Positions 34,209 through 43,781 of a DNA stretch of 64,000 nucleotides are shown here, piece after piece. The notes under the pieces were generated by a model. The model did not search any database and was not told the DNA's origin. It worked only from the letters and a program-made list of their open reading frames with translations. The position numbers were made by a program, and so were the translations under genes. Within the stretch, counting starts at the first letter, position 1, and the number at the start of each line of letters is the position of its first letter. Source of the DNA: Phycisphaeraceae bacterium (GTDB lineage Bacteria > Planctomycetota > Phycisphaerae > Phycisphaerales > Zrk34); contig JANQHD010000018.1 in assembly GCA_028282805.1 (NCBI GenBank), positions 1 to 64,000 on the forward strand, written 5' to 3'.

Positions 34209-35948
34209 TCAACCCGCTGCATACATTTGTTGCAACTTACGCAATCGGCCGGCGCTGTCGATCAGGCCGCCCTCACGGTTGCGCTGTCGCCAGATCGTTT
34301 CATGCTGCGTAATCAGTTCGCCGAGCGCCCTGCTCAATGATTGCCTGACGTTCGCAGCCAACGCCGCGATCGGCGCGCGGTTGGCATCGCAACGGGCCAC
34401 GCCGATCTTGCAACCGTGCATAAACAGGTCGGCCGCAAGTTGCCATTCCTTTTGAATCAGTTCGGCATCGTTACGTTCCATCCGCGCTCGCGGCAGGGCG
34501 GCGATAGCAGCCTCGACCGCCTCGGCCGCGTTACGCATGGTGCAGGCCGTGACATCATGCGGCAAATCAACCACGGGTTCGTACATCAGCCGCGCCGGCC
34601 ACGCCGCGTTGTGAATCGGCTTGCCGCACAGGCGGTACGCGCCGCCGAGTTCGAGCGTGTGTCGCCCCATCACGCCCGCGCGGTCGCGGTACACGTGCAG
34701 ATCGAGCGCCCGCGCCAAGTTCAACGCCCCGTTCGCGCCGCGCGCCCAACTCATCGCCGCCCCCCACGCGTAGCCCGCCCACGACACCGGTAGCGGCTGC
34801 CAATGACCGTGGTCGCCCCAGTCCGTGATCAGCAGGCCCGCCGCACCGTGTTCACACGCTCCCTTGGTCGCGCGTGCGATGTTGTTGCGCATGTTCGGCG
34901 TGCGCCCCACGAAGCTGTTCCAGCCCGACGTGCCCGGGCAGACGTAAAACGGCACGCCCGCCTCGGCGAAACGCTGCGCCTGCTCGTCGAACGGGTGGTC
35001 CGCTTCGTAGCCCCACAACAGCGCCACCGCATCGCTCGGCAATTCGCTAACCAAGCCCGGGTGCTCGAGCACCACATCGCCCCAGTATTGCGCGGCCCGC
35101 CCGAATCGCTTCGCACACCCGATGACCTTGTTCAAATACTCGAGGTACACCCGGCCCACCCCGCGCTCGGCGCAAGCCGTGGCGCTATGTCCCTGGCCCA
35201 ACTCGAACGTCTCATCGCACCCAACGTTGACGCGATTCGACTTAAAACAAGGCAAAATCTCGCTCAGCAAGCCATCGACCAGCGCGATCGACCGCGCGTC
35301 CAGCGGGCTCAACGTCCCCGCCGGCCGGTGCTGGCCCCACGCATCGACAAAACCGTCCGGTGTCTCCGCCAGGTCCGCGTAAGCCGGGTGCTTCAACCAC
35401 CGCTCGAAATGCCCAAAGCAATTTTGGTTCGGCACCAATTCGATAAAGCGTTCTGCGCAATACGCGTCTAACTCGCGCACCTGTTCCGCCGTCATCGGCG
35501 AAGCGTTCTGCCACACCACCTCGTGCGCCGCGTACGTGAACGTGTGCTCCGTGTACAACTGCAACTGGTTAACCTTCAACGACGCGAGCAGGTCCACCGT
35601 TTGACGCAGCGTCGCCATCGTCGGCACCTTGTCCCGGCTGATATCCACCATCACCCCCCGGTGGGCCAAGTCGGGCCAATCCGTAACCCGAACGTTTGGC
35701 AGTGCTACACCCCACGTCGCCAATCGTTTCAACTGCGTCAGTGTTTGCTTCGCGTAGTATGCGCCCGCACCGTCTGCCGCTTCGACCGACACCGCGTTAT
35801 CCCGCAGCGTCAGCACGTAGCCTTCTCGCTTGTTGAACACCTCGTGCCCGACACGCACCGCGTCATCGTCAACCGTAAAACCGCCGGTGTACGCGCCGCC
35901 AAGCGTTTCGACCCGCTGCGGCGTCGGCAGCAACACGAGTTCATCCAT
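34209..35948 (-). CDS. GH20-type beta-N-acetylhexosaminidase-like protein
   Basis: A 579-residue protein. A small N-terminal domain (TPQRVETLGGAYTGGF) is followed by a TIM barrel that begins RGVMVDISRDKVPTM. The catalytic Asp-Glu pair of GH20 is in RVNVGCDETFELG (about residues 240-252), and the barrel continues with QYWGDVVLEHP and ITDWGDHGHWQPL. There is no signal peptide, so it is probably cytoplasmic. The start overlaps the ROK-MurQ stop by eight bases. In that operon it would release GlcNAc from imported disaccharides or muropeptide fragments, which is an inference from context. Confidence 0.78.
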   Translation of the reverse strand: MDELVLLPTPQRVETLGGAYTGGFTVDDDAVRVGHEVFNKREGYVLTLRDNAVSVEAADGAGAYYAKQTLTQLKRLATWGVALPNVRVTDWPDLAHRGVMVDISRDKVPTMATLRQTVDLLASLKVNQLQLYTEHTFTYAAHEVVWQNASPMTAEQVRELDAYCAERFIELVPNQNCFGHFERWLKHPAYADLAETPDGFVDAWGQHRPAGTLSPLDARSIALVDGLLSEILPCFKSNRVNVGCDETFELGQGHSATACAERGVGRVYLEYLNKVIGCAKRFGRAAQYWGDVVLEHPGLVSELPSDAVALLWGYEADHPFDEQAQRFAEAGVPFYVCPGTSGWNSFVGRTPNMRNNIARATKGACEHGAAGLLITDWGDHGHWQPLPVSWAGYAWGAAMSWARGANGALNLARALDLHVYRDRAGVMGRHTLELGGAYRLCGKPIHNAAWPARLMYEPVVDLPHDVTACTMRNAAEAVEAAIAALPRARMERNDAELIQKEWQLAADLFMHGCKIGVARCDANRAPIAALAANVRQSLSRALGELITQHETIWRQRNREGGLIDSAGRLRKLQQMYAAG

Positions 35949-37680
35949 CGCGACGCTCCAGCACGTCGCCGATCCGGCTGCCCGCGTCGTCCAATAGCCG
36001 CCGTGCCTCATCATACGAAACGCCCAACCGCTGCATCACAATCGCGGGCTTAACCTCACCGTTTGCCTTGTCCAGCAGTGCGAAAGCCGCCTCGCGCTCC
36101 AGCCCCGCCAGCGTCACGATGATCCGCGCCGCCCGGTCGCGTAGCTTCGCGTTGCTCGCCCGCAAGTCCACCATCAGGTTCTCGTACACCCGGCCGCTGC
36201 GCACCATGAGCGTCGTGCTGATCGTATTCAGCGCCAGCTTCGTCGCCGTGCCCGCCTTCATGCGCGTCGAACCGGTCACAACCTCTGCGCCGGTCTCGAT
36301 CACGATCATGTGGTCCGCCCCCACGGGCCGCTCGACGGGCGCACACGTCAGCAGGGCGGTGTTACACCCCGGCGCGACCTGTTTCGCGTAACCGATCGCC
36401 CCTCGCACATACCGCGTCGTACCGCCTGCGGCGATGCCCACGACCGAATCGTCATCGGTCAGCGCCAATCGGTCCAACGCCACGACCGCGCCGCGCTCAT
36501 CGTCTTCTTTGCCCTCGCTCGATCTCCGCAGCGAACGATCGCCCCCGGCGATGATGCCCACCACCTTGCCGGGGTCGACCTGAAACGTCGGCGGCATCTC
36601 CGATGCGTCCAACACACCCAACCGCCCCGACGTGCCCGCGCCGACGTATATCAACCGACCCCCACGCGCAAACTTTGGTTCCGCCGCTTCGACGAACGCC
36701 GTGATCGTCGGCAGCCCACGCCCGACCGCAGCCGCTACCGTTTGATCTTCCGCGTTGATCAGCGCCGCCACCTCACCCGTCGACAGGCGGTGCAAGTCCC
36801 CCGACCGCGCGTTGCGCTGCTCGGTCAACACGTGCGCCCGGTCGGCAGGCAACGTGCCGGTCGCCGGCGCGCATTGCGCTGCGCCGATCGCGGCCGCGCA
36901 GCGACCGATTTCACCGCAACGCAACCGCCATTGCGCCGGTGCCGCGTGCGTCAAACCGTCTGTGACAGCGCTTCGCAAGCGTTGCAATTCATCGCACAAA
37001 CCCAGTCCACCGCCGCCGAGCAGCACGATCTCGTCCGGCCGATACATCGCCAGCATCACGCGCAGCCCGCGCGCCAACGCGCCGAACGCCGCCTCGCCCC
37101 ACGCCCCGCACGCGCCCCGCGCAGCCGAGCCGACGTACGCTTCCAACGAACCCCGACCGCCGTCCGCCGCGACCGGCGCCCCCGCCTCGCCGCCCGACAC
37201 GTCGATGTGTCCGAGGTGCCCCGGCGTCCCGCGCGTCACGTCCAACGCCTCGCCCCCGTCGAGCACCACGCCGCCCACGCCCGCGCCGATCGACAAGTAC
37301 ATCGCCCGCCCGCCCACCGGCCTCGCGTGCCACTCGGCCATCGCCGCCGCGCAAGCATCACTCGTCACCACCGGTTCGCACTCTAAATCGAGTGTATTTC
37401 GCAGCCACGACCCGACCACCACGCCCACCAGCGCCGGTAGGTTCGTCGCCGCCGTCACCACGCCCGCTTCGTCCACCACGCCCACCAGCGCCACACCGAC
37501 GCCCACCGCGTCGCCCGGTGCGCCCAGTTCATCGCACACCCCGCGCACCGCCTCGGCCAGCGCTTCGAGCGTCGGCCGCTCGTACGTCGCGCTGATCGCC
37601 GTGCGTGTGTTATCCCCCCGAAGCAGCGCCGCCTTGACCGCGGTGCCGCCGATGTCGATGCCCAACCGAGCGCCGTTCAT
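35941..37680 (-). CDS. murQ: Fused ROK-type sugar kinase and MurNAc-6-phosphate etherase
   Basis: A 579-residue fusion. Residues 1 to about 255 are a ROK/ASKHA kinase: LGIDIGGTAVKAALL is the phosphate loop, LSIGAGVGGVVLDGG the second ATP motif, and GHLGHIDV matches the ROK E-x-G-H block. The ROK zinc motif (CxCGxxGC) is reduced to a cysteine-free DGGRGSLEAY. Residues about 270-579 are MurQ: GAGTSGRLGVLDASEMPPTF keeps the catalytic Glu, and ENLMVDLRASNAKL is the family block. Kinase and etherase together would turn MurNAc into GlcNAc-6-phosphate and lactate. ATGA overlap with the GHL10 gene upstream. Confidence 0.85.
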   Translation of the reverse strand: MNGARLGIDIGGTAVKAALLRGDNTRTAISATYERPTLEALAEAVRGVCDELGAPGDAVGVGVALVGVVDEAGVVTAATNLPALVGVVVGSWLRNTLDLECEPVVTSDACAAAMAEWHARPVGGRAMYLSIGAGVGGVVLDGGEALDVTRGTPGHLGHIDVSGGEAGAPVAADGGRGSLEAYVGSAARGACGAWGEAAFGALARGLRVMLAMYRPDEIVLLGGGGLGLCDELQRLRSAVTDGLTHAAPAQWRLRCGEIGRCAAAIGAAQCAPATGTLPADRAHVLTEQRNARSGDLHRLSTGEVAALINAEDQTVAAAVGRGLPTITAFVEAAEPKFARGGRLIYVGAGTSGRLGVLDASEMPPTFQVDPGKVVGIIAGGDRSLRRSSEGKEDDERGAVVALDRLALTDDDSVVGIAAGGTTRYVRGAIGYAKQVAPGCNTALLTCAPVERPVGADHMIVIETGAEVVTGSTRMKAGTATKLALNTISTTLMVRSGRVYENLMVDLRASNAKLRDRAARIIVTLAGLEREAAFALLDKANGEVKPAIVMQRLGVSYDEARRLLDDAGSRIGDVLERRDG

Positions 37681-38888
37681 GGCGTCGGTTCGTCCGAAAG
37701 CCTGCCGCGCAGGTAAGCGCGAACGATGTTCAACCGCATCTTCCGCAGCGCCCGCGCCGAATCCGACTTGTCCTGCCCGCTGCTGACGCTCTCGAACAAC
37801 GAGCTGTACGCAAACAGACACACACCGTCCGCGCCCCGCACGTGCGCATGCGCCATCTGCCGCACCGTCTGGCTCGGTTGTTCGTGCTTGTACAAGCCGA
37901 CGCCCGCGATCACCACCGCTTGACCTTCGATCGCGAGCACCTCGGCCATGTCGGCTTTGAATTGCTCGTTATCGTCGGTGTACACCATCGGCATCACCGC
38001 GTCGACATAGCCTTCGCGCATCCAATCCGCGTAGCGCTGCATGTAGTTCTGCTCGGCGATCTGCGGGTTGCGCCACACCGCCGCTGACACCATCGCGTCC
38101 GGCCGTTTCGCCTTGACGCCCGTGCTGATCGTCTCGACCAGCGACGTGATCCGATCCGCGATGAACCGGTCGTACGCCGCGCGGTCCGCGGTGGCGCTCT
38201 GTCCCGTGCTCGCGGTGAACATCGCGTGGCTCACTCGGTCCGCCGGGTATCCCGCCCCGGTCTCGGCGCTCTCGGTGATGAATCGAATGTAATCCAGGTG
38301 CACCCCATCCACCGCATACCGCGTGACGATGTCGTCGACCACGGCCAGTATGTGCTTGTGCGTCGCGGTCAGCACCGGGTTGATCGTCGTGTAGTGATCG
38401 CTCAGTGGTTGCGGCTTGCCGGCCGTGTCTTTCAGCCGCCACTCGGGGTGCGTGTAAAACACGTGCCGCCGGTCGCGGGGCGGCGTCTTGCCCTTCCACA
38501 TCGACATCACGTTAACCCAAGCGTGCAGCTTCATCCCGCGCTGGTGGGCCGCGTCGATCGCCACCGCCAGCGGGTCGAAGCCCGGGTCGGTCGCGCCGTC
38601 GGGCAGGCCTTCCAACAGCAGCTCGCTCCACGGTTCGAGCTCGCTCGGGTACAGCGCATCGGCCTGGCCGCGCACCTGGAAGAACACGTCGGTCACCCCC
38701 GCCGAGCGCGCGTCGGCCATGATCTGCCGGATGTGCTCGGGCCGTTTGAAGTCCCACCGCGTCACCCACAGGCCGACGAACTTCGGCGGCTGCGACAGGT
38801 CAACACGCGGGGCCTCGGCGGTGCTGGTAAACACCGAGCAACCCAGCAACAACACGGCGATCAAACTCAGCGTGGTCAGTCGTGGCAT
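37677..38888 (-). CDS. GHL10 (glycosyl hydrolase-like 10) lipoprotein
   Basis: A 403-residue protein with a lipoprotein signal: LSLIAVLLLGCS, the Cys near residue 17 being the lipidation site. The domain begins FVGLWVTRWDF and contains DGVHLDYIRF and YVDAVMPMVYTDD, the GHL10/DUF187 (YngK-like) pattern of a predicted TIM-barrel glycosidase. It is probably anchored in the envelope and acts on peptidoglycan or another glycan. The ATG at 38888 has GGAGAG upstream and lies 13 bases inside the symporter gene's end; an ATG at 38903 is the alternative. Confidence 0.82.
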   Translation of the reverse strand: MPRLTTLSLIAVLLLGCSVFTSTAEAPRVDLSQPPKFVGLWVTRWDFKRPEHIRQIMADARSAGVTDVFFQVRGQADALYPSELEPWSELLLEGLPDGATDPGFDPLAVAIDAAHQRGMKLHAWVNVMSMWKGKTPPRDRRHVFYTHPEWRLKDTAGKPQPLSDHYTTINPVLTATHKHILAVVDDIVTRYAVDGVHLDYIRFITESAETGAGYPADRVSHAMFTASTGQSATADRAAYDRFIADRITSLVETISTGVKAKRPDAMVSAAVWRNPQIAEQNYMQRYADWMREGYVDAVMPMVYTDDNEQFKADMAEVLAIEGQAVVIAGVGLYKHEQPSQTVRQMAHAHVRGADGVCLFAYSSLFESVSSGQDKSDSARALRKMRLNIVRAYLRGRLSDEPTP

Positions 38889-40462
38889 GGCGTCTCTCCG
38901 CATCTTACCTTTATCGGCCGACCCACCGCGCACACCGCAAAACTCACCGCCGTGCCGATCGGCATCCACCACGGCCACGCCAGCACGATCGGTTTATCCA
39001 GCCAGTAACCCGTGATCCCCCGGCAGTAGTACGGCCGAACCATCACGATCACCAGCACGCCCACCGCCAGCGCCGCGATCGCCGTGAAGCTGTTGCCCCG
39101 TTTTGTGAGCAAGGCGGTCAAAAACACCCCCAGCAACCCCGCATAGGCGAACGCCATCACCCCCAGCGCGAAATCGATCAGCGTGTCGCTTTCCGCGTCA
39201 TACACCGCCACCGCCCCCAGCGCAAAGCCCGTCAACAGCATCCCCATCACCACCACCGCGACCCGCGAGTGCTTCAGCGCCTCTAAGTCGCCGACCGCCA
39301 GCCCGCGCCGCTTGCGCCACGGCACGTACAGGTCCGCCACCGCCGTCGACGCCATCGCGTTGATCGCCGAGTCCACGCTGCTCATCGCCGCGGCGAACAG
39401 GCCGGCCATCGCCAGCCCCGCCAGGCCCGTCGGCAAGTGGTTGAACAGAAACTGGGGGTACACCTTCTCCGCCCGATCCAACGCGTCGGTCGGCGCCGCC
39501 GCGCCCATCAGGTCCGGCCGCTGGTAGAAGATGAACAACAGCAAGCCGATTACCATGAACAGAACGGTGATGGGGATGTTCGCCACGATCGCCGTGACGA
39601 CAGACACCGACCCGCGTGCGGCCGACTTGCAGGTGAGCATGCGTTGGGTGAGGTCCTGGTCGACGCCGTAGCTGGCCACGCTCATGAACACGATCGCGAA
39701 CGTGCCGGTCCACAGCGTGTATTTCGCGGCGGGTTCGGTCGAGTAGCTGAGCCATTCGAGCTTGTTTGCGCCGTCCTTGCCGCTTGTTTCGAGCGCAGCT
39801 GCGATCTCACCGAGCGACAGCGGTATCTTGTCGAGCAGCAGCACCAGCGACAGCACCGCCGCGCCGACGACGATGACGATCTGCAACACATCTGTCCATA
39901 TCACCGCCTTGATCCCGCCGACCGCGGTGTAGGCGGTACCGACCGCGCCGAGTATGACGATCGCCTCGGCGAGGTTGGCGGGCTTGAGTTCGCCGTGCAG
40001 TATCACGGTGAAGGCGATGCCGGCCATGAACAGGCGTGAGCCCGACGCGAGCAGTCTGCCGAAGAGAAACATCGCGCTGGCGCCGTGCATGGCGGGGTTG
40101 CCGAAGCGTTGGCCGAGGTAGCCGTAGATGGTGGTGGTGCCCGCCCGGTAGAACGCGGGTATGAACAGCACCGCGACGATCACCGCGCCGGTGATGCCGC
40201 CGATGTTCAAAATGAGGTAGGTCAGGTCGCCCGTGAACGCGACCTGCGGCACGCCGATGAAGGTCGCGGCGCTGAGGGCCGTGGCCATCACGCTCATCGC
40301 TACCGCCCAGGTGGGCATCTTGCGTGAGCCGAGAAAGAAGCTCTCGCGGTCGGTCTGCCGCCGGCCGGCCACCCAGCCGATGGCCACCATGACCGCCAGG
40401 TACGCGACCAGCACCGCCCAGTCGATCGGTTCGAATGCGGCCAAGGTCGTCGTCGACACCAC
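38876..40462 (-). CDS. Sodium:solute symporter (SSS family)
   Basis: A 528-residue membrane protein with about 13 hydrophobic segments. It begins WAVLVAYLAVMVAIGWVAGR and has the SSS-type FFLGSRKMPTWAVAMSVMAT. Alternate GTG codons at 40462 and 40459 are possible; GGAGG lies seven bases before the first. It is the first gene of a four-gene overlapping operon (symporter, GHL10 lipoprotein, ROK-MurQ, GH20). Transport of an amino sugar or of MurNAc-containing material would fit, but the substrate is inferred only from the neighbours. Confidence 0.86.
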   Translation of the reverse strand: MVSTTTLAAFEPIDWAVLVAYLAVMVAIGWVAGRRQTDRESFFLGSRKMPTWAVAMSVMATALSAATFIGVPQVAFTGDLTYLILNIGGITGAVIVAVLFIPAFYRAGTTTIYGYLGQRFGNPAMHGASAMFLFGRLLASGSRLFMAGIAFTVILHGELKPANLAEAIVILGAVGTAYTAVGGIKAVIWTDVLQIVIVVGAAVLSLVLLLDKIPLSLGEIAAALETSGKDGANKLEWLSYSTEPAAKYTLWTGTFAIVFMSVASYGVDQDLTQRMLTCKSAARGSVSVVTAIVANIPITVLFMVIGLLLFIFYQRPDLMGAAAPTDALDRAEKVYPQFLFNHLPTGLAGLAMAGLFAAAMSSVDSAINAMASTAVADLYVPWRKRRGLAVGDLEALKHSRVAVVVMGMLLTGFALGAVAVYDAESDTLIDFALGVMAFAYAGLLGVFLTALLTKRGNSFTAIAALAVGVLVIVMVRPYYCRGITGYWLDKPIVLAWPWWMPIGTAVSFAVCAVGRPIKVRCGETPCHD

Positions 40463-40528: not shown

Positions 40529-41851
40529 TCAGCCGTCGTACGCGCCGTCGCCGAACAGCGTCAGTCGGATCAGGCGGGTGATGTCGGTGTTGTCGAACGA
40601 GCCGGCGACGCGGTCGCGGTTCAGGCCGTCGGCACGGACGAGCACGCCGCCTGAGCCGTCGGAGCGCGTGGCCCACATGACCGCGAACTTCATGACCCGT
40701 CCGGCCTTGTCGGGCTTGGCGGTGAAGGGGGGCGTGTTTTCGCCGTCGATGCCGTCGCGTGGGGCGCCGTTGCGGTCTTTGGCGTTGACGGTGGCGGGCG
40801 CTGCGGACTTGTCGTCGCCGAGGCCGATGTGCAGCATGCCGCCGGCGTTGGAGTCGGCGGCGACCACGACCAGGGTGTTGCGGTGTTGGGCGAGGTACGC
40901 CCGCGCGACGCCGATCGTTTCATCGCTGCGCTTCAGAGCCTGCAACGTGCCCATCGCGTTGTTGTGGTTGGAGAAGTTGTCGGTGCCTTCCTCTTCCACG
41001 ACGAGCATGAACGGCTTGCCCTTGCGGCTGAGCACTTTCAGCGCGGCCCGCGTCATCTCCGCGACGGTCGGGGCGTCGGCGTTGTAGGGTTTGAGGCCTC
41101 GCTCGCGCAGCACCTCTTCGGGTCGGTCGTTGAACGTGTGGTGCTCGGCAAACAGGCCGAGGACCTTGTCGGTGTTATCCGGCAGGGCGGTTAACTGCTC
41201 GCGCGTATACACGATGGTGTAACCGTGCTGCTTGGCGAGCTCGACCAGGTTTTTGCCGTCTTTGCGTTTGCCGACGCCGTGGCGCCCTTGCGCCCCCTCG
41301 GGCAGGAACAGCGACTCGCCGCCGCCGAGGATCACGTCCGCGCCGGATTCGACCATCTGCAGCGAGATCTCGTCGTGCATCTTCCGGCTGGGCACGGACG
41401 CGAGGAAGCAGGCGGTGCCGGGCTCGGTGTTGATGCCCGAGTTGACCACGCCCACGGGCATGCCGGCCCGCATGGCTTGGTGCATGACGCTGGTGGATCG
41501 GCCCTGCGCATCGACGATCGGGTTGTCGCCGTCGGTGCCGAATGACCGGCGAGGGGCCTTGACGCCGTGTGCGTGCATGGTGCCGCCGGCGTTGGAGGTC
41601 ACGGTCAGGGAGTCGGAGGCGTGGTCGCGGTAGACAGCGATGGCGGGCAGCTTGTCCCAGTTCAGCTCGCCGTCGGGCCCGACGTGCCAGACGCGCAGGG
41701 CCGCGAAGTGCGCGGCGCTGGCGCCGTCGGGGTGGATGAAGATGACGCTGCCGGTCTTTGGTGAACCGCTGCCGTTGTTGCCACAGCCGGCGAGCATCAC
41801 GAAGACCAGGCATACACCGACGACGGCCAACAAGCGTGGGGGGCGGTTCAT
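40529..41851 (-). CDS. Alkaline phosphatase-like lipoprotein with altered active-site motifs
   Basis: A 440-residue protein with a lipobox (VMLAGC, Cys23). The alkaline phosphatase fold is recognisable: IFIHPDGAS holds the first metal Asp (Asp42), VVEEEGTDNFSNHNNA is the second metal block, and a C-terminal VVVAADSNAGGM corresponds to the usual TADHETGG. The usual Asp-Ser nucleophile pair reads TSNAGGT here (Ser86, Asn87), and the His of ADH is replaced by Ser. So phosphatase activity is plausible but altered; a related phosphodiester or sulfate ester hydrolase is the alternative. It is followed by a gap of 66 bases before the symporter start. Confidence 0.72.
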   Translation of the reverse strand: MNRPPRLLAVVGVCLVFVMLAGCGNNGSGSPKTGSVIFIHPDGASAAHFAALRVWHVGPDGELNWDKLPAIAVYRDHASDSLTVTSNAGGTMHAHGVKAPRRSFGTDGDNPIVDAQGRSTSVMHQAMRAGMPVGVVNSGINTEPGTACFLASVPSRKMHDEISLQMVESGADVILGGGESLFLPEGAQGRHGVGKRKDGKNLVELAKQHGYTIVYTREQLTALPDNTDKVLGLFAEHHTFNDRPEEVLRERGLKPYNADAPTVAEMTRAALKVLSRKGKPFMLVVEEEGTDNFSNHNNAMGTLQALKRSDETIGVARAYLAQHRNTLVVVAADSNAGGMLHIGLGDDKSAAPATVNAKDRNGAPRDGIDGENTPPFTAKPDKAGRVMKFAVMWATRSDGSGGVLVRADGLNRDRVAGSFDNTDITRLIRLTLFGDGAYDG

Positions 41852-41910
41852 CTTGATTCTCCTTGCACATCGGCGCAAACAGACGGGGCCGTGGAGCCGG
41901 GAGAATAACA

Positions 41911-41941
41911 AAAACGACCGACGGTTGGCGTCGGCCGTTTT
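41911..41941 (-). terminator. Terminator downstream of tRNA-His
   Basis: Arms 41911-41922 and 41930-41941 pair with one A-C mismatch around a 7-base loop. On the minus strand the stem is followed by a T run. It lies 12 bases after the tRNA 3' end and upstream of the phosphatase gene, so it would separate the two transcripts. Confidence 0.75.
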
Positions 41942-41953
41942 CCGGTGAGTAAG

Positions 41954-42028
41954 GGTGGCTGAGGGGATTCGAACCCCCGACCCCCTGGACCACAACCAGG
42001 TGCTCTAACCAACTGAGCTACAGCCACC
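41954..42028 (-). tRNA. tRNA-His (anticodon GTG)
   Basis: The minus strand folds as a complete cloverleaf of 75 bases. The anticodon loop TTGTGGT gives GTG, which reads His codons CAC and CAT. A 7-bp acceptor stem (gtggctg with cagccac) leaves an encoded extra G at position -1 opposite C73, the identity feature of histidine tRNA. The T loop TTCGAAT is standard. The CCA end is not encoded. Confidence 0.97.
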
Positions 42029-42152
42029 GTCGGGTGAACGGGGTACTGTAGTGCGGGCCCCGATCGGCTGTCAAACCCCGGTTTTCCCCATACAATATGG
42101 TGTTGGCGACACGCCGGACACGGACCCGAACCGGACTGGGAGCTTCGATACC

Positions 42153-43781
42153 TTGCTGATCCTCACGATCCTTCAAGGCCCCGACAAGGGCAAACGCTTC
42201 GAGTTGCCCGACCACGAACCGCAACTGATCGGCCGGTCGAGCGAGGCGCTGCCCCTGACGGACATGACCATCTCCCGCCGCCACGCCGAGCTGACGCCCG
42301 ACGACGGCCAGTGGTACATCAACGACCTCGATTCGGCCAACGGCACCTTCGTCAACGGCGAGAAGGTCTCCGAGCCGACGCTGTTGAAGACCGGCGACCA
42401 GCTCCGCACGGGTTCGACGCTGTTCCTCTACGGCCGCGAGTCGCAGTTCCGCGAACACCCCGTGCGCGTGGTGCGCCACGGGCGGATGGATTCGTCGGTC
42501 GAGAAGACCGTGCCTTCCAACGACGACTCGGTGATCATGGCCGTGCCGGAACCGACCGCCGAGGCCGCGCACCAATTGGCGGTGATCTACCAGCTGATGC
42601 AGCTGGTCGGTTCGAACTTCGACCGGCGCGTGCTGCTCGAGCGTGTGATGGATTTGATCTTCGAGCACTTCGAGGTCGACCGCGGGTTTATCCTGCTGCA
42701 GAACGACCCCGACCAGCGGCCGGACCCGGTGGTGGTGCGTTACCGGCAGAAGCCGCGCACCAAAGACGAGAAAAACATCATGGTCTCGCGCACGATCGTG
42801 CAGCACGTGATGCACAAGCGCGAGGGCGTGCTCAGCTCGAACGCCATGGCCGACCGGCGGTTCCGTGCCGGCGACTCGGTGCAGGAGTACCGCATCCGCT
42901 CGGCGATGTGCGTGCCGATGCAGTTTCAGGACCGGCTGTTCGGCGTGATCCACGTCGACAGCCAGGTCAAGAACTACACGTACACCGACGACCAGTTGCG
43001 CTTAATGACCGCGATCGGGGCGCAGGCGGGCATGGCGCTGTCCAACGCCGTGCTTTACCAGAAGGGCATGCAGAACGCGCGCCTCGCCGCGGTGGGCGAG
43101 ACGGTGGCGAACCTCTCGCACTCGGTGCGCAACATCCTCCAGGGCATGCGCGGCGGGGCGGAGGTGGTCGAGCTCGGCCTGCGCCGCAACGACCTGAACG
43201 TGATGCGCAACGGGTGGGACATCCTCTCGCGCAACCTCGACCGCATCTACGAGCTGACCATGAACATGCTCGCGTACTCCAAGCAGCGCAAGCCCGAGTT
43301 CCAGATGCTCTCGCTGCCGGCGTTGATCACGGAGATCGTCGAGCTCGTGCAGCCCTCGTGCGACAAGCGGCAGGTGGCGCTGATCACGGAGACGGACGAC
43401 AACATGCCGCCGATCCCCGCCGACCCGTCGGGCCTGCACCAGGCGATCATCAACCTGGTCAACAACGCGGTCGACGCGGTCGAGCCCGACATCGGCGCGA
43501 TCACCATCCGCTGCGCGTACAACCCGATCGAGCAGACCGCGACGATCGTGGTGTCCGACAACGGCCAGGGCATCGACGAGGAAAGCCAACGCCAGATCTT
43601 CCAGCCGTTCTACTCGACCAAGGGCCAGCGCGGCACGGGCCTGGGCCTGGCGGTGACGCGCAAGATCATCGACGAGCACGGCGGCCGCATCGAGCTCGAC
43701 ACCGGCCCCGGCGCGGGCACGACGTTCACCATCGAGCTGTCGACCCAGCACGTCGCCGACCCCGCCGCGACCACGGCGTGA
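42153..43781 (+). CDS. FHA-GAF sensor histidine kinase
   Basis: About 542 residues from a TTG at 42153 (GGGAG upstream); a GTG at 42051 would add 34 residues that look unrelated to the FHA fold. Domains in order: FHA (about 1-95: IGRSSEALPLTDMTISRRHAEL, then DLDSANGTFVNGE), GAF (about 150-310: FEVDRGFILLQ), a HisKA-like helix with the likely phospho-His in ANLSHSVRNILQG, and an HATPase domain (NLVNNAVDAVEP, DNGQGID, GTGLGLAV). No membrane segment is seen, so it is a cytoplasmic sensor. No response regulator gene is adjacent. The FHA domain implies recognition of phosphothreonine proteins. Confidence 0.88.
   Translation: MLILTILQGPDKGKRFELPDHEPQLIGRSSEALPLTDMTISRRHAELTPDDGQWYINDLDSANGTFVNGEKVSEPTLLKTGDQLRTGSTLFLYGRESQFREHPVRVVRHGRMDSSVEKTVPSNDDSVIMAVPEPTAEAAHQLAVIYQLMQLVGSNFDRRVLLERVMDLIFEHFEVDRGFILLQNDPDQRPDPVVVRYRQKPRTKDEKNIMVSRTIVQHVMHKREGVLSSNAMADRRFRAGDSVQEYRIRSAMCVPMQFQDRLFGVIHVDSQVKNYTYTDDQLRLMTAIGAQAGMALSNAVLYQKGMQNARLAAVGETVANLSHSVRNILQGMRGGAEVVELGLRRNDLNVMRNGWDILSRNLDRIYELTMNMLAYSKQRKPEFQMLSLPALITEIVELVQPSCDKRQVALITETDDNMPPIPADPSGLHQAIINLVNNAVDAVEPDIGAITIRCAYNPIEQTATIVVSDNGQGIDEESQRQIFQPFYSTKGQRGTGLGLAVTRKIIDEHGGRIELDTGPGAGTTFTIELSTQHVADPAATTA

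What the first reader, a model, noticed from the sequence alone, without database searches (positions are those of the whole stretch)
34209..40462. Amino-sugar salvage operon with a fused ROK kinase-MurQ enzyme
Symporter, GHL10 lipoprotein, ROK-MurQ fusion and GH20-type enzyme overlap one another by 4 to 13 bases. Kinase plus etherase in one chain would carry MurNAc to GlcNAc-6-phosphate. In most bacteria MurNAc reaches MurQ as a phosphate made by a PTS or by a separate kinase (AnmK, MurK). The fused kinase also lacks the zinc-binding cysteines usual for ROK proteins.
Basis: partly seen in the sequence, partly recalled or inferred. Interest (0 to 1): 0.62.

Follow-up and report, generated by a model that had tools for sequence, protein, structure and literature searches.

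The report
Fused sugar-kinase/MurQ cell-wall salvage enzyme
In one genus of planctomycete bacteria, a ROK-type sugar kinase and the cell-wall sugar enzyme MurQ are joined in a single protein inside a peptidoglycan-salvage operon, and the kinase half looks like a previously unrecognised kind of N-acetylmuramic acid kinase.

Summary
Four overlapping genes on the minus strand encode an SSF symporter, a GHL10 lipoprotein, a 579-aa ROK-MurQ fusion and a cytoplasmic GH20 enzyme. The fusion is not an assembly error: another genome of the same genus has the same four genes in the same order, with the fusion 62% identical over its full length. It is rare: none of about 760 other Planctomycetota genomes searched showed it. 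Nearby relatives carry SSF-AnmK-MurQ instead. Strain ZRK32 and one relative carry SSF-ROK-MurQ-GH20 as separate genes. Among Phycisphaerales genomes with MurQ but no AnmK, 38 of 58 carry this ROK clade, against 55 of 272 that have AnmK. The window genome has no AnmK, no MurK-type kinase above cut-off, no PTS EIIC, and only one other ROK kinase. The missing zinc cysteines are clade-wide and known elsewhere. More telling, the residues said to hold the sugar 3-OH in NagK (Asn104, Glu154) are Ser/Thr and His across nearly all of the clade, and MurNAc carries its lactyl group on O3. Best reading: a bifunctional MurNAc 6-kinase/MurNAc-6P etherase, working like MurT-MurK-MurQ of Tannerella. Kinase activity and substrate are inferred, not shown.

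The parts
38876..40462 (-). Na+/solute symporter (SSF), presumed importer of MurNAc or of a GlcNAc-MurNAc disaccharide
   Evidence: PF00474 132 bits (cut-off 22.8), TIGR00813 197 bits (cut-off 184); 75% identical in genus mate L069
37677..38888 (-). GHL10 (DUF187) lipoprotein, candidate peptidoglycan-cleaving enzyme
   Evidence: PF02638 122 bits (cut-off 27.9); lipobox LLLGC; GHL10 domain of Cwp19 is a lytic transglycosylase (PMC6016235)
35941..37680 (-). ROK kinase-MurQ fusion, 579 aa
   Evidence: single open frame, two families; full-length homologue L069; AlphaFold2 model mean pLDDT 84.6, pTM 0.56
36868..37680 (-). ROK kinase half (about residues 1-271)
   Evidence: PF00480; Foldseek matches to ROK kinases over about 300 columns (3vov, 2aa4, 7p7w)
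37357..37362 (-). Ser107-Asp108: predicted catalytic base, preceded by Ser instead of the Asn (PsNagK N104) that holds the 3-OH
   Evidence: alignment A5; PMC10031466
37207..37218 (-). HLGH motif, His155 and His158, in place of ExGH
   Evidence: EcNanK has His153/His156 here (PMC5458393)
35944..36852 (-). MurQ half (about residues 277-579)
   Evidence: TIGR00274 331 bits; PDB 4s12 E=3.5e-69
36598..36600 (-). Glu361 of DASE-PPT, equivalent of E. coli MurQ Glu83
   Evidence: role of Glu83 from own knowledge of MurQ work
36514..36516 (-). Glu389 of EGKED, equivalent of E. coli MurQ Glu114
   Evidence: role from own knowledge
34209..35948 (-). GH20-type beta-N-acetylhexosaminidase without signal peptide, presumed cytoplasmic, DE pair present (GCDE)
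   Evidence: PF00728 63 bits (cut-off 22.3), PF02838 40 bits (cut-off 26.1); sequence

Best explanation
The operon salvages peptidoglycan sugars. The GHL10 lipoprotein cuts glycan outside the cytoplasm; the SSF symporter imports the MurNAc-containing sugar; the cytoplasmic GH20 removes GlcNAc from GlcNAc-MurNAc; the ROK half phosphorylates MurNAc (possibly GlcNAc too) at O6; and the MurQ half on the same chain removes D-lactate, giving GlcNAc-6P. The ROK half belongs to a Phycisphaerales clade that takes the kinase role held by AnmK in sister genera. Shown: gene content, fusion, conservation, active-site residues, gene-slot exchange, co-occurrence. Inferred: kinase activity, substrate, direction of transport, any channelling.
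For: Fusion and operon conserved in a second species. Same-family genera carry SSF-AnmK-MurQ, so the kinase slot beside MurQ is swapped. ZRK32 and G409 carry SSF-ROK-MurQ-GH20 unfused, elsewhere in the ROK tree. G000 (99.8% complete) lacks AnmK, BadF/MurK above cut-off and PTS EIIC; of its three other ROK proteins two are HTH regulators and one is a glucokinase-like kinase keeping Asn-Asp and ExGH. MurQ+/AnmK- genomes carry the ROK clade in 38/58 (27/33 at 90% completeness or more, 13/18 genera) versus 55/272 with AnmK. The PsNagK 3-OH ligands N104 and E154 (PMC10031466) are Ser/Thr and His in nearly all clade members. Clade members sit beside GHL10 or a D-Ala-D-Ala dipeptidase-like gene. MurQ catalytic Glu residues kept. 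Analogous operon in Tannerella: sodium-symporter-family MurT with MurK and MurQ (PMC5790795).
Against: No biochemistry. GHL10 of Cwp19 makes 1,6-anhydroMurNAc ends (PMC6016235), which an ordinary ROK kinase would not be expected to open. 55 genomes have both this ROK clade and AnmK, so the ROK may serve another sugar there. Six well-assembled MurQ+/AnmK- genomes lack the ROK clade as well. The co-occurrence test is not corrected for phylogeny. In both fused proteins a segment after LEAY is shortened (26 and 16 residues between Glu180 and Arg207, against 30-41 in 29 standalone relatives), and the window protein has GAGVGG where PsNagK has the phosphate-binding Thr132. EcNanK also has His at the ExGH Glu position, so that change alone is not diagnostic.
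Confidence: 0.6

Rival explanations
1. The ROK half is a GlcNAc kinase (NagK role): GH20 frees GlcNAc, the ROK half makes GlcNAc-6P, and the fusion joins two enzymes with a common product rather than consecutive steps.
For: The clade co-occurs with AnmK in 55 genomes and sits near SSF-GH20-AnmK-MurQ operons on separate transcripts (L105, L125, L137), where GlcNAc still needs a kinase. Bacterial NagK is a ROK enzyme.
Against: Both NagK residues assigned to the 3-OH are replaced. MurQ in G000 would then have no recognised source of MurNAc-6P. The clade is enriched where AnmK is missing.
Confidence: 0.2
2. The ROK half replaces AnmK chemically: it acts on 1,6-anhydroMurNAc made by the GHL10 lytic transglycosylase.
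For: AnmK occupies the same slot in sister genera; Cwp19 GHL10 gives anhydro ends.
Against: No AnmK family match at E<=1. ROK kinases use the 6-OH, which is tied up in the anhydro sugar. Cwp19 also gave reducing ends where MurNAc bears no peptide.
Confidence: 0.08
3. The ROK half has lost catalysis and now serves as a regulatory or structural domain of MurQ, comparable to the pairing of GKRP (a MurQ homologue) with glucokinase.
For: Shortened lobe segment; ROK half less conserved than MurQ half between the two species (51% against 71%); Ala for Thr in GAGVGG.
Against: DIGGT, catalytic Asp108, His155/158, Glu180 and the glycine-rich motif are kept in both species; the ROK fold is predicted with good confidence; GAG also occurs in three standalone members.
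Confidence: 0.08
4. The frame is continuous but MurQ is also, or only, made from an internal start, so the halves act as separate proteins.
For: L069 has GTG-ATG at the junction and the window has TTG a few codons before LPADRAHVLTEQRN; the junction is predicted disordered (residues 275-289).
Against: No stop in either genome, no Shine-Dalgarno-like sequence at the L069 junction, and no ATG at the junction in the window.
Confidence: 0.04

Closest known systems
Tannerella forsythia murT-murK-murQ operon (PMC5790795, PMC10465942)
   Same: Sodium-symporter-family transporter, sugar kinase and MurQ in one operon; PTS-independent MurNAc use ending in GlcNAc-6P
   Different: Tf_MurK is a BcrAD/BadFG-type kinase (PF01869) and a separate protein; here the kinase is ROK and fused to MurQ, with added GHL10 and GH20 genes
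AnmK-MurQ operons of sister Phycisphaerales (L082-L088)
   Same: Same transporter family, same MurQ clade, often GH20
   Different: Kinase is AnmK, which opens and phosphorylates anhydroMurNAc; separate ORF
E. coli MurP-MurQ pathway
   Same: MurQ reaction and conserved catalytic Glu pair
   Different: MurNAc-6P made by a PTS; no PTS EIIC found in this genome
E. coli and F. nucleatum NanK (ROK ManNAc kinases; PMC5458393)
   Same: HxGH in EcNanK; no zinc site in FnNanK; ROK fold
   Different: NanK keeps Asn before the catalytic Asp; not fused; sialic acid pathway
Human GNE
   Same: Bifunctional enzyme containing a ROK kinase domain for an N-acetyl amino sugar
   Different: Partner domain is UDP-GlcNAc 2-epimerase
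Clostridioides difficile Cwp19 (PMC6016235)
   Same: GHL10 domain acting on peptidoglycan
   Different: Cell-wall-bound autolysin, not in a sugar-salvage operon

Membership tests
ROK kinases | N-terminal DxGxT phosphate motif | tested here: met
   LGIDIGGT, residues 6-13
ROK kinases | Conserved catalytic Asp in the active-site loop | tested here: met
   Asp108 invariant in 31 sequences
ROK kinases | ExGH sugar-binding motif | tested here: not met
   HLGH; His155 in place of Glu, as in EcNanK. Known ROK variation, so placement rests on Pfam score and fold
ROK kinases | CxCGxxGCx(E/D) zinc motif | tested here: not met
   VAADGGRGSLE; cysteines absent clade-wide; also absent in FnNanK
ROK kinases | Pfam ROK above cut-off and ROK fold | tested here: met
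   66 bits against 22.9; Foldseek to 3vov, 7p7w, 2aa4
MurQ (TIGR00274) | Score above equivalog cut-off | tested here: met
   330.8 against 302
MurQ (TIGR00274) | Two catalytic Glu (E. coli Glu83, Glu114) | tested here: met
   Glu361 and Glu389
MurQ (TIGR00274) | Etherase activity on MurNAc-6P | not testable with these tools
   needs enzyme assay
MurK (BadF-type MurNAc kinase, PF01869) | PF01869 match | tested here: not met
   no PF01869 match at E<=1
AnmK (PF03702) | PF03702 match | tested here: not met
   no match at E<=1; none in G000
MurNAc 6-kinase (function) | ATP-dependent phosphorylation of MurNAc | not testable with these tools
   inferred only
GHL10 lytic transglycosylase | PF02638 above cut-off | tested here: met
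   122.3 against 27.9; catalytic residues not compared

The most novel reading that the evidence does not exclude
A ROK-based class of MurNAc 6-kinases, marked by replacement of the O3-holding Asn/Glu pair by Ser/Thr and His, occurs across Phycisphaerales, takes over from AnmK in several lineages, and in one genus became covalently joined to MurQ as a two-step enzyme.
Probability: 0.45. Interest if true: 0.62.

Novelty: new variant of a known kind. Interest (0 to 1): 0.5.

Why it matters
Known 6-phosphorylation of muramic acid sugars relies on a PTS, on BadF-type MurK, or on AnmK for the anhydro sugar. A ROK-type MurNAc kinase would be a further independent solution, would assign a function to a clade seen here in 93 of 400 Phycisphaerales genomes (now matched only to general sugar-kinase families), and would give a compact bifunctional enzyme for MurNAc salvage. 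Strain ZRK32, with a complete genome, carries the unfused form, so the idea can be tested.

Tried and rejected
Sequencing or assembly error joining two genes: rejected, the fusion recurs in G394. G497:C10 looked like a second full-length fusion (residues 2-574 with one TGA) but is AnmK followed by MurQ. Other long open frames upstream of MurQ that were inspected (G416, G485, G576, G488, G592, G703, G681 and others) were AnmK or no recognised kinase rather than ROK fusions. Plasmid and phage collections: no record covering both halves. Viral contigs: none. Genome-contig scan: 12 ROK-clade loci, only the known fusion (L142 = G394) and unfused forms. The scan with A3 failed for lack of conserved stretches. 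Alignments A1 and A4 mixed ROK-only and MurQ-only rows wrongly and were not used for the kinase; A3 and A5 were (A3 checked). Other phyla could not be searched genome-wide, so fusions outside Planctomycetota are not excluded. No open-access paper found that describes a ROK-MurQ fusion or a ROK MurNAc kinase; absence from that library is weak evidence.

Full report
Observation. Reading on the minus strand: SSF symporter 40462-38876, GHL10 lipoprotein 38888-37677, ROK-MurQ 37680-35941, GH20 35948-34209. Overlaps are 13, 4 and 8 bases. The fusion most likely starts at ATG 37680, whose ATGA overlaps the GHL10 stop. ROK and MurQ both score above curated cut-offs in this one frame, and solved relatives match each half. 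An AlphaFold2 model (mean pLDDT 84.6, pTM 0.56) gives a ROK fold and a MurQ fold with a low-confidence joint at residues 275-289; Foldseek pairs the halves with ROK kinases (3vov, 7p7w NagK, 2aa4 NanK) and with MurQ (4s12, 4lzj).

Is the fusion real? Yes. The genome is a planctomycete of order Phycisphaerales, judged from the named records of its relatives. A genome of the same genus (G394, recorded as Phycisphaeraceae bacterium PL25a_bin.124) has the same four genes in the same order, with a full-length fused homologue 62% identical and no stop. It is also rare: searches of 392 Planctomycetota, 9 same-family and 400 same-order genomes (overlapping sets) gave only these two. The sole other full-length match, G497, proved to be AnmK followed by MurQ.

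Gene-slot exchange. Sister genera of the same family have SSF-AnmK-MurQ; others have SSF-GH20-AnmK-MurQ. Strain ZRK32 and G409 have SSF-ROK-MurQ-GH20 with separate ROK and MurQ genes. G398 has SSF-GHL10-ROK with MurQ about 3.6 kb beyond the symporter. Many other family-f2 genomes have a GHL10-ROK pair, and in some the ROK gene lies close to an SSF-GH20-AnmK-MurQ operon (L125, L105, L137), while G220 has SSF, a D-Ala-D-Ala dipeptidase-like gene and ROK. In a ROK tree the fused pair groups together (95/76) apart from the ZRK32 pair, so ROK next to MurQ either arose more than once or was lost repeatedly.

Co-occurrence. In the sample of 400 genomes of the order, 38 of 58 with MurQ and no AnmK carry the ROK clade, against 55 of 272 with MurQ and AnmK (odds ratio 7.5; Fisher p 5e-11, not corrected for relatedness). 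At 90% completeness or more it is 27 of 33 genomes and 13 of 18 genera. The sets were transcribed by hand from the tool listings.

The window's genome. At 99.8% completeness it has no AnmK, no PF01869 kinase above cut-off and no PTS EIIC. Of its three other ROK proteins, two carry a helix-turn-helix and look like regulators, and one resembles a glucokinase with Asn-Asp and ExGH intact. The fused ROK is therefore the best candidate to supply MurNAc-6P to MurQ. NagA (TIGR00221) was not detected, but a 664-aa glucosamine-6-phosphate deaminase fused to a PIG-L deacetylase domain (PRK02122, 1016 bits) may take GlcNAc-6P onward; that step is inference.

Kinase pocket. The zinc cysteines are missing, but also in the whole clade and in F. 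nucleatum NanK, so this is not a mark of the fusion. More specific is the sugar pocket. In P. shigelloides NagK, N104 and E154 are reported to coordinate the 3-OH of GlcNAc, and their mutation strongly impairs use of GlcNAc (PMC10031466). In this clade Asn is Ser or Thr (rarely another residue) and Glu is His, while Asp108 (catalytic) and Glu180 are invariant. MurNAc is GlcNAc with a lactyl ether on O3, so losing the O3 hydrogen bonds and a negative charge there is what a MurNAc site would need. This is a structural inference; EcNanK also has His at the second position, though it keeps the Asn. Both fused proteins have a shortened segment after LEAY (26 and 16 residues against 30-41), a possible sign of changed assembly or reduced kinase function.

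Mechanism and weight. GHL10 (a peptidoglycan-cleaving domain in Cwp19, PMC6016235) cuts glycan; SSF imports; GH20, which has no signal peptide, frees GlcNAc in the cytoplasm; the ROK half phosphorylates MurNAc; MurQ, with both catalytic Glu present, yields GlcNAc-6P and D-lactate. This works like MurT-MurK-MurQ of Tannerella (PMC5790795) but the kinase is not a member of the MurK family. I give the bifunctional MurNAc kinase/etherase reading 0.6, a GlcNAc-kinase reading 0.2, and the remainder to anhydro-sugar use, a non-catalytic ROK half, or separate translation.

Novelty. Each part is known. The ROK-MurQ fusion, and ROK as the kinase feeding MurQ, were not found in the papers searched, so I class it as a new variant of a known kind. 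The wider ROK clade, with ZRK32 as a strain with a complete genome, is the more useful lead.

Noticed in passing
L158:8189-10183 (G000:C3): 664-aa NagB-type deaminase fused to a PIG-L deacetylase domain (PRK02122, 1016 bits), 170 bases from a divergent ROK-HTH regulator; NagA was not detected in this genome, so the fusion may supply the deacetylation step.
   Followed up: partly
L133:6993-7661 (G220): A D-Ala-D-Ala dipeptidase-like gene (Peptidase_M15, 89 bits) lies between an SSF symporter and a standalone ROK of the same clade, tying the clade to peptidoglycan salvage outside MurQ operons.
   Followed up: partly
40529-41900, minus strand: An alkaline-phosphatase-like lipoprotein gene ends 66 bases upstream of the symporter on the same strand; it is absent from the matching place in L069, so it was not counted in the operon.
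   Followed up: no
41910-42074, minus strand: tRNA-His (41953-42027) with a sigma-70-like promoter 18 bases upstream and a terminator-like hairpin just downstream.
   Followed up: no
L069:8874-10502 and window 42051-43781: A sensor histidine kinase-like gene with an FHA-like N-terminus lies upstream of the operon on the opposite strand in both genomes of the genus, so the shared neighbourhood extends beyond the four genes.
   Followed up: no
L073:11931-13028 and L071:1029-2120: Similar GntR-type regulators (the L073 one has a sugar-binding domain) precede SSF-ROK-MurQ-GH20 in ZRK32 and SSF-ROK without MurQ in G520, suggesting a shared inducer.
   Followed up: no
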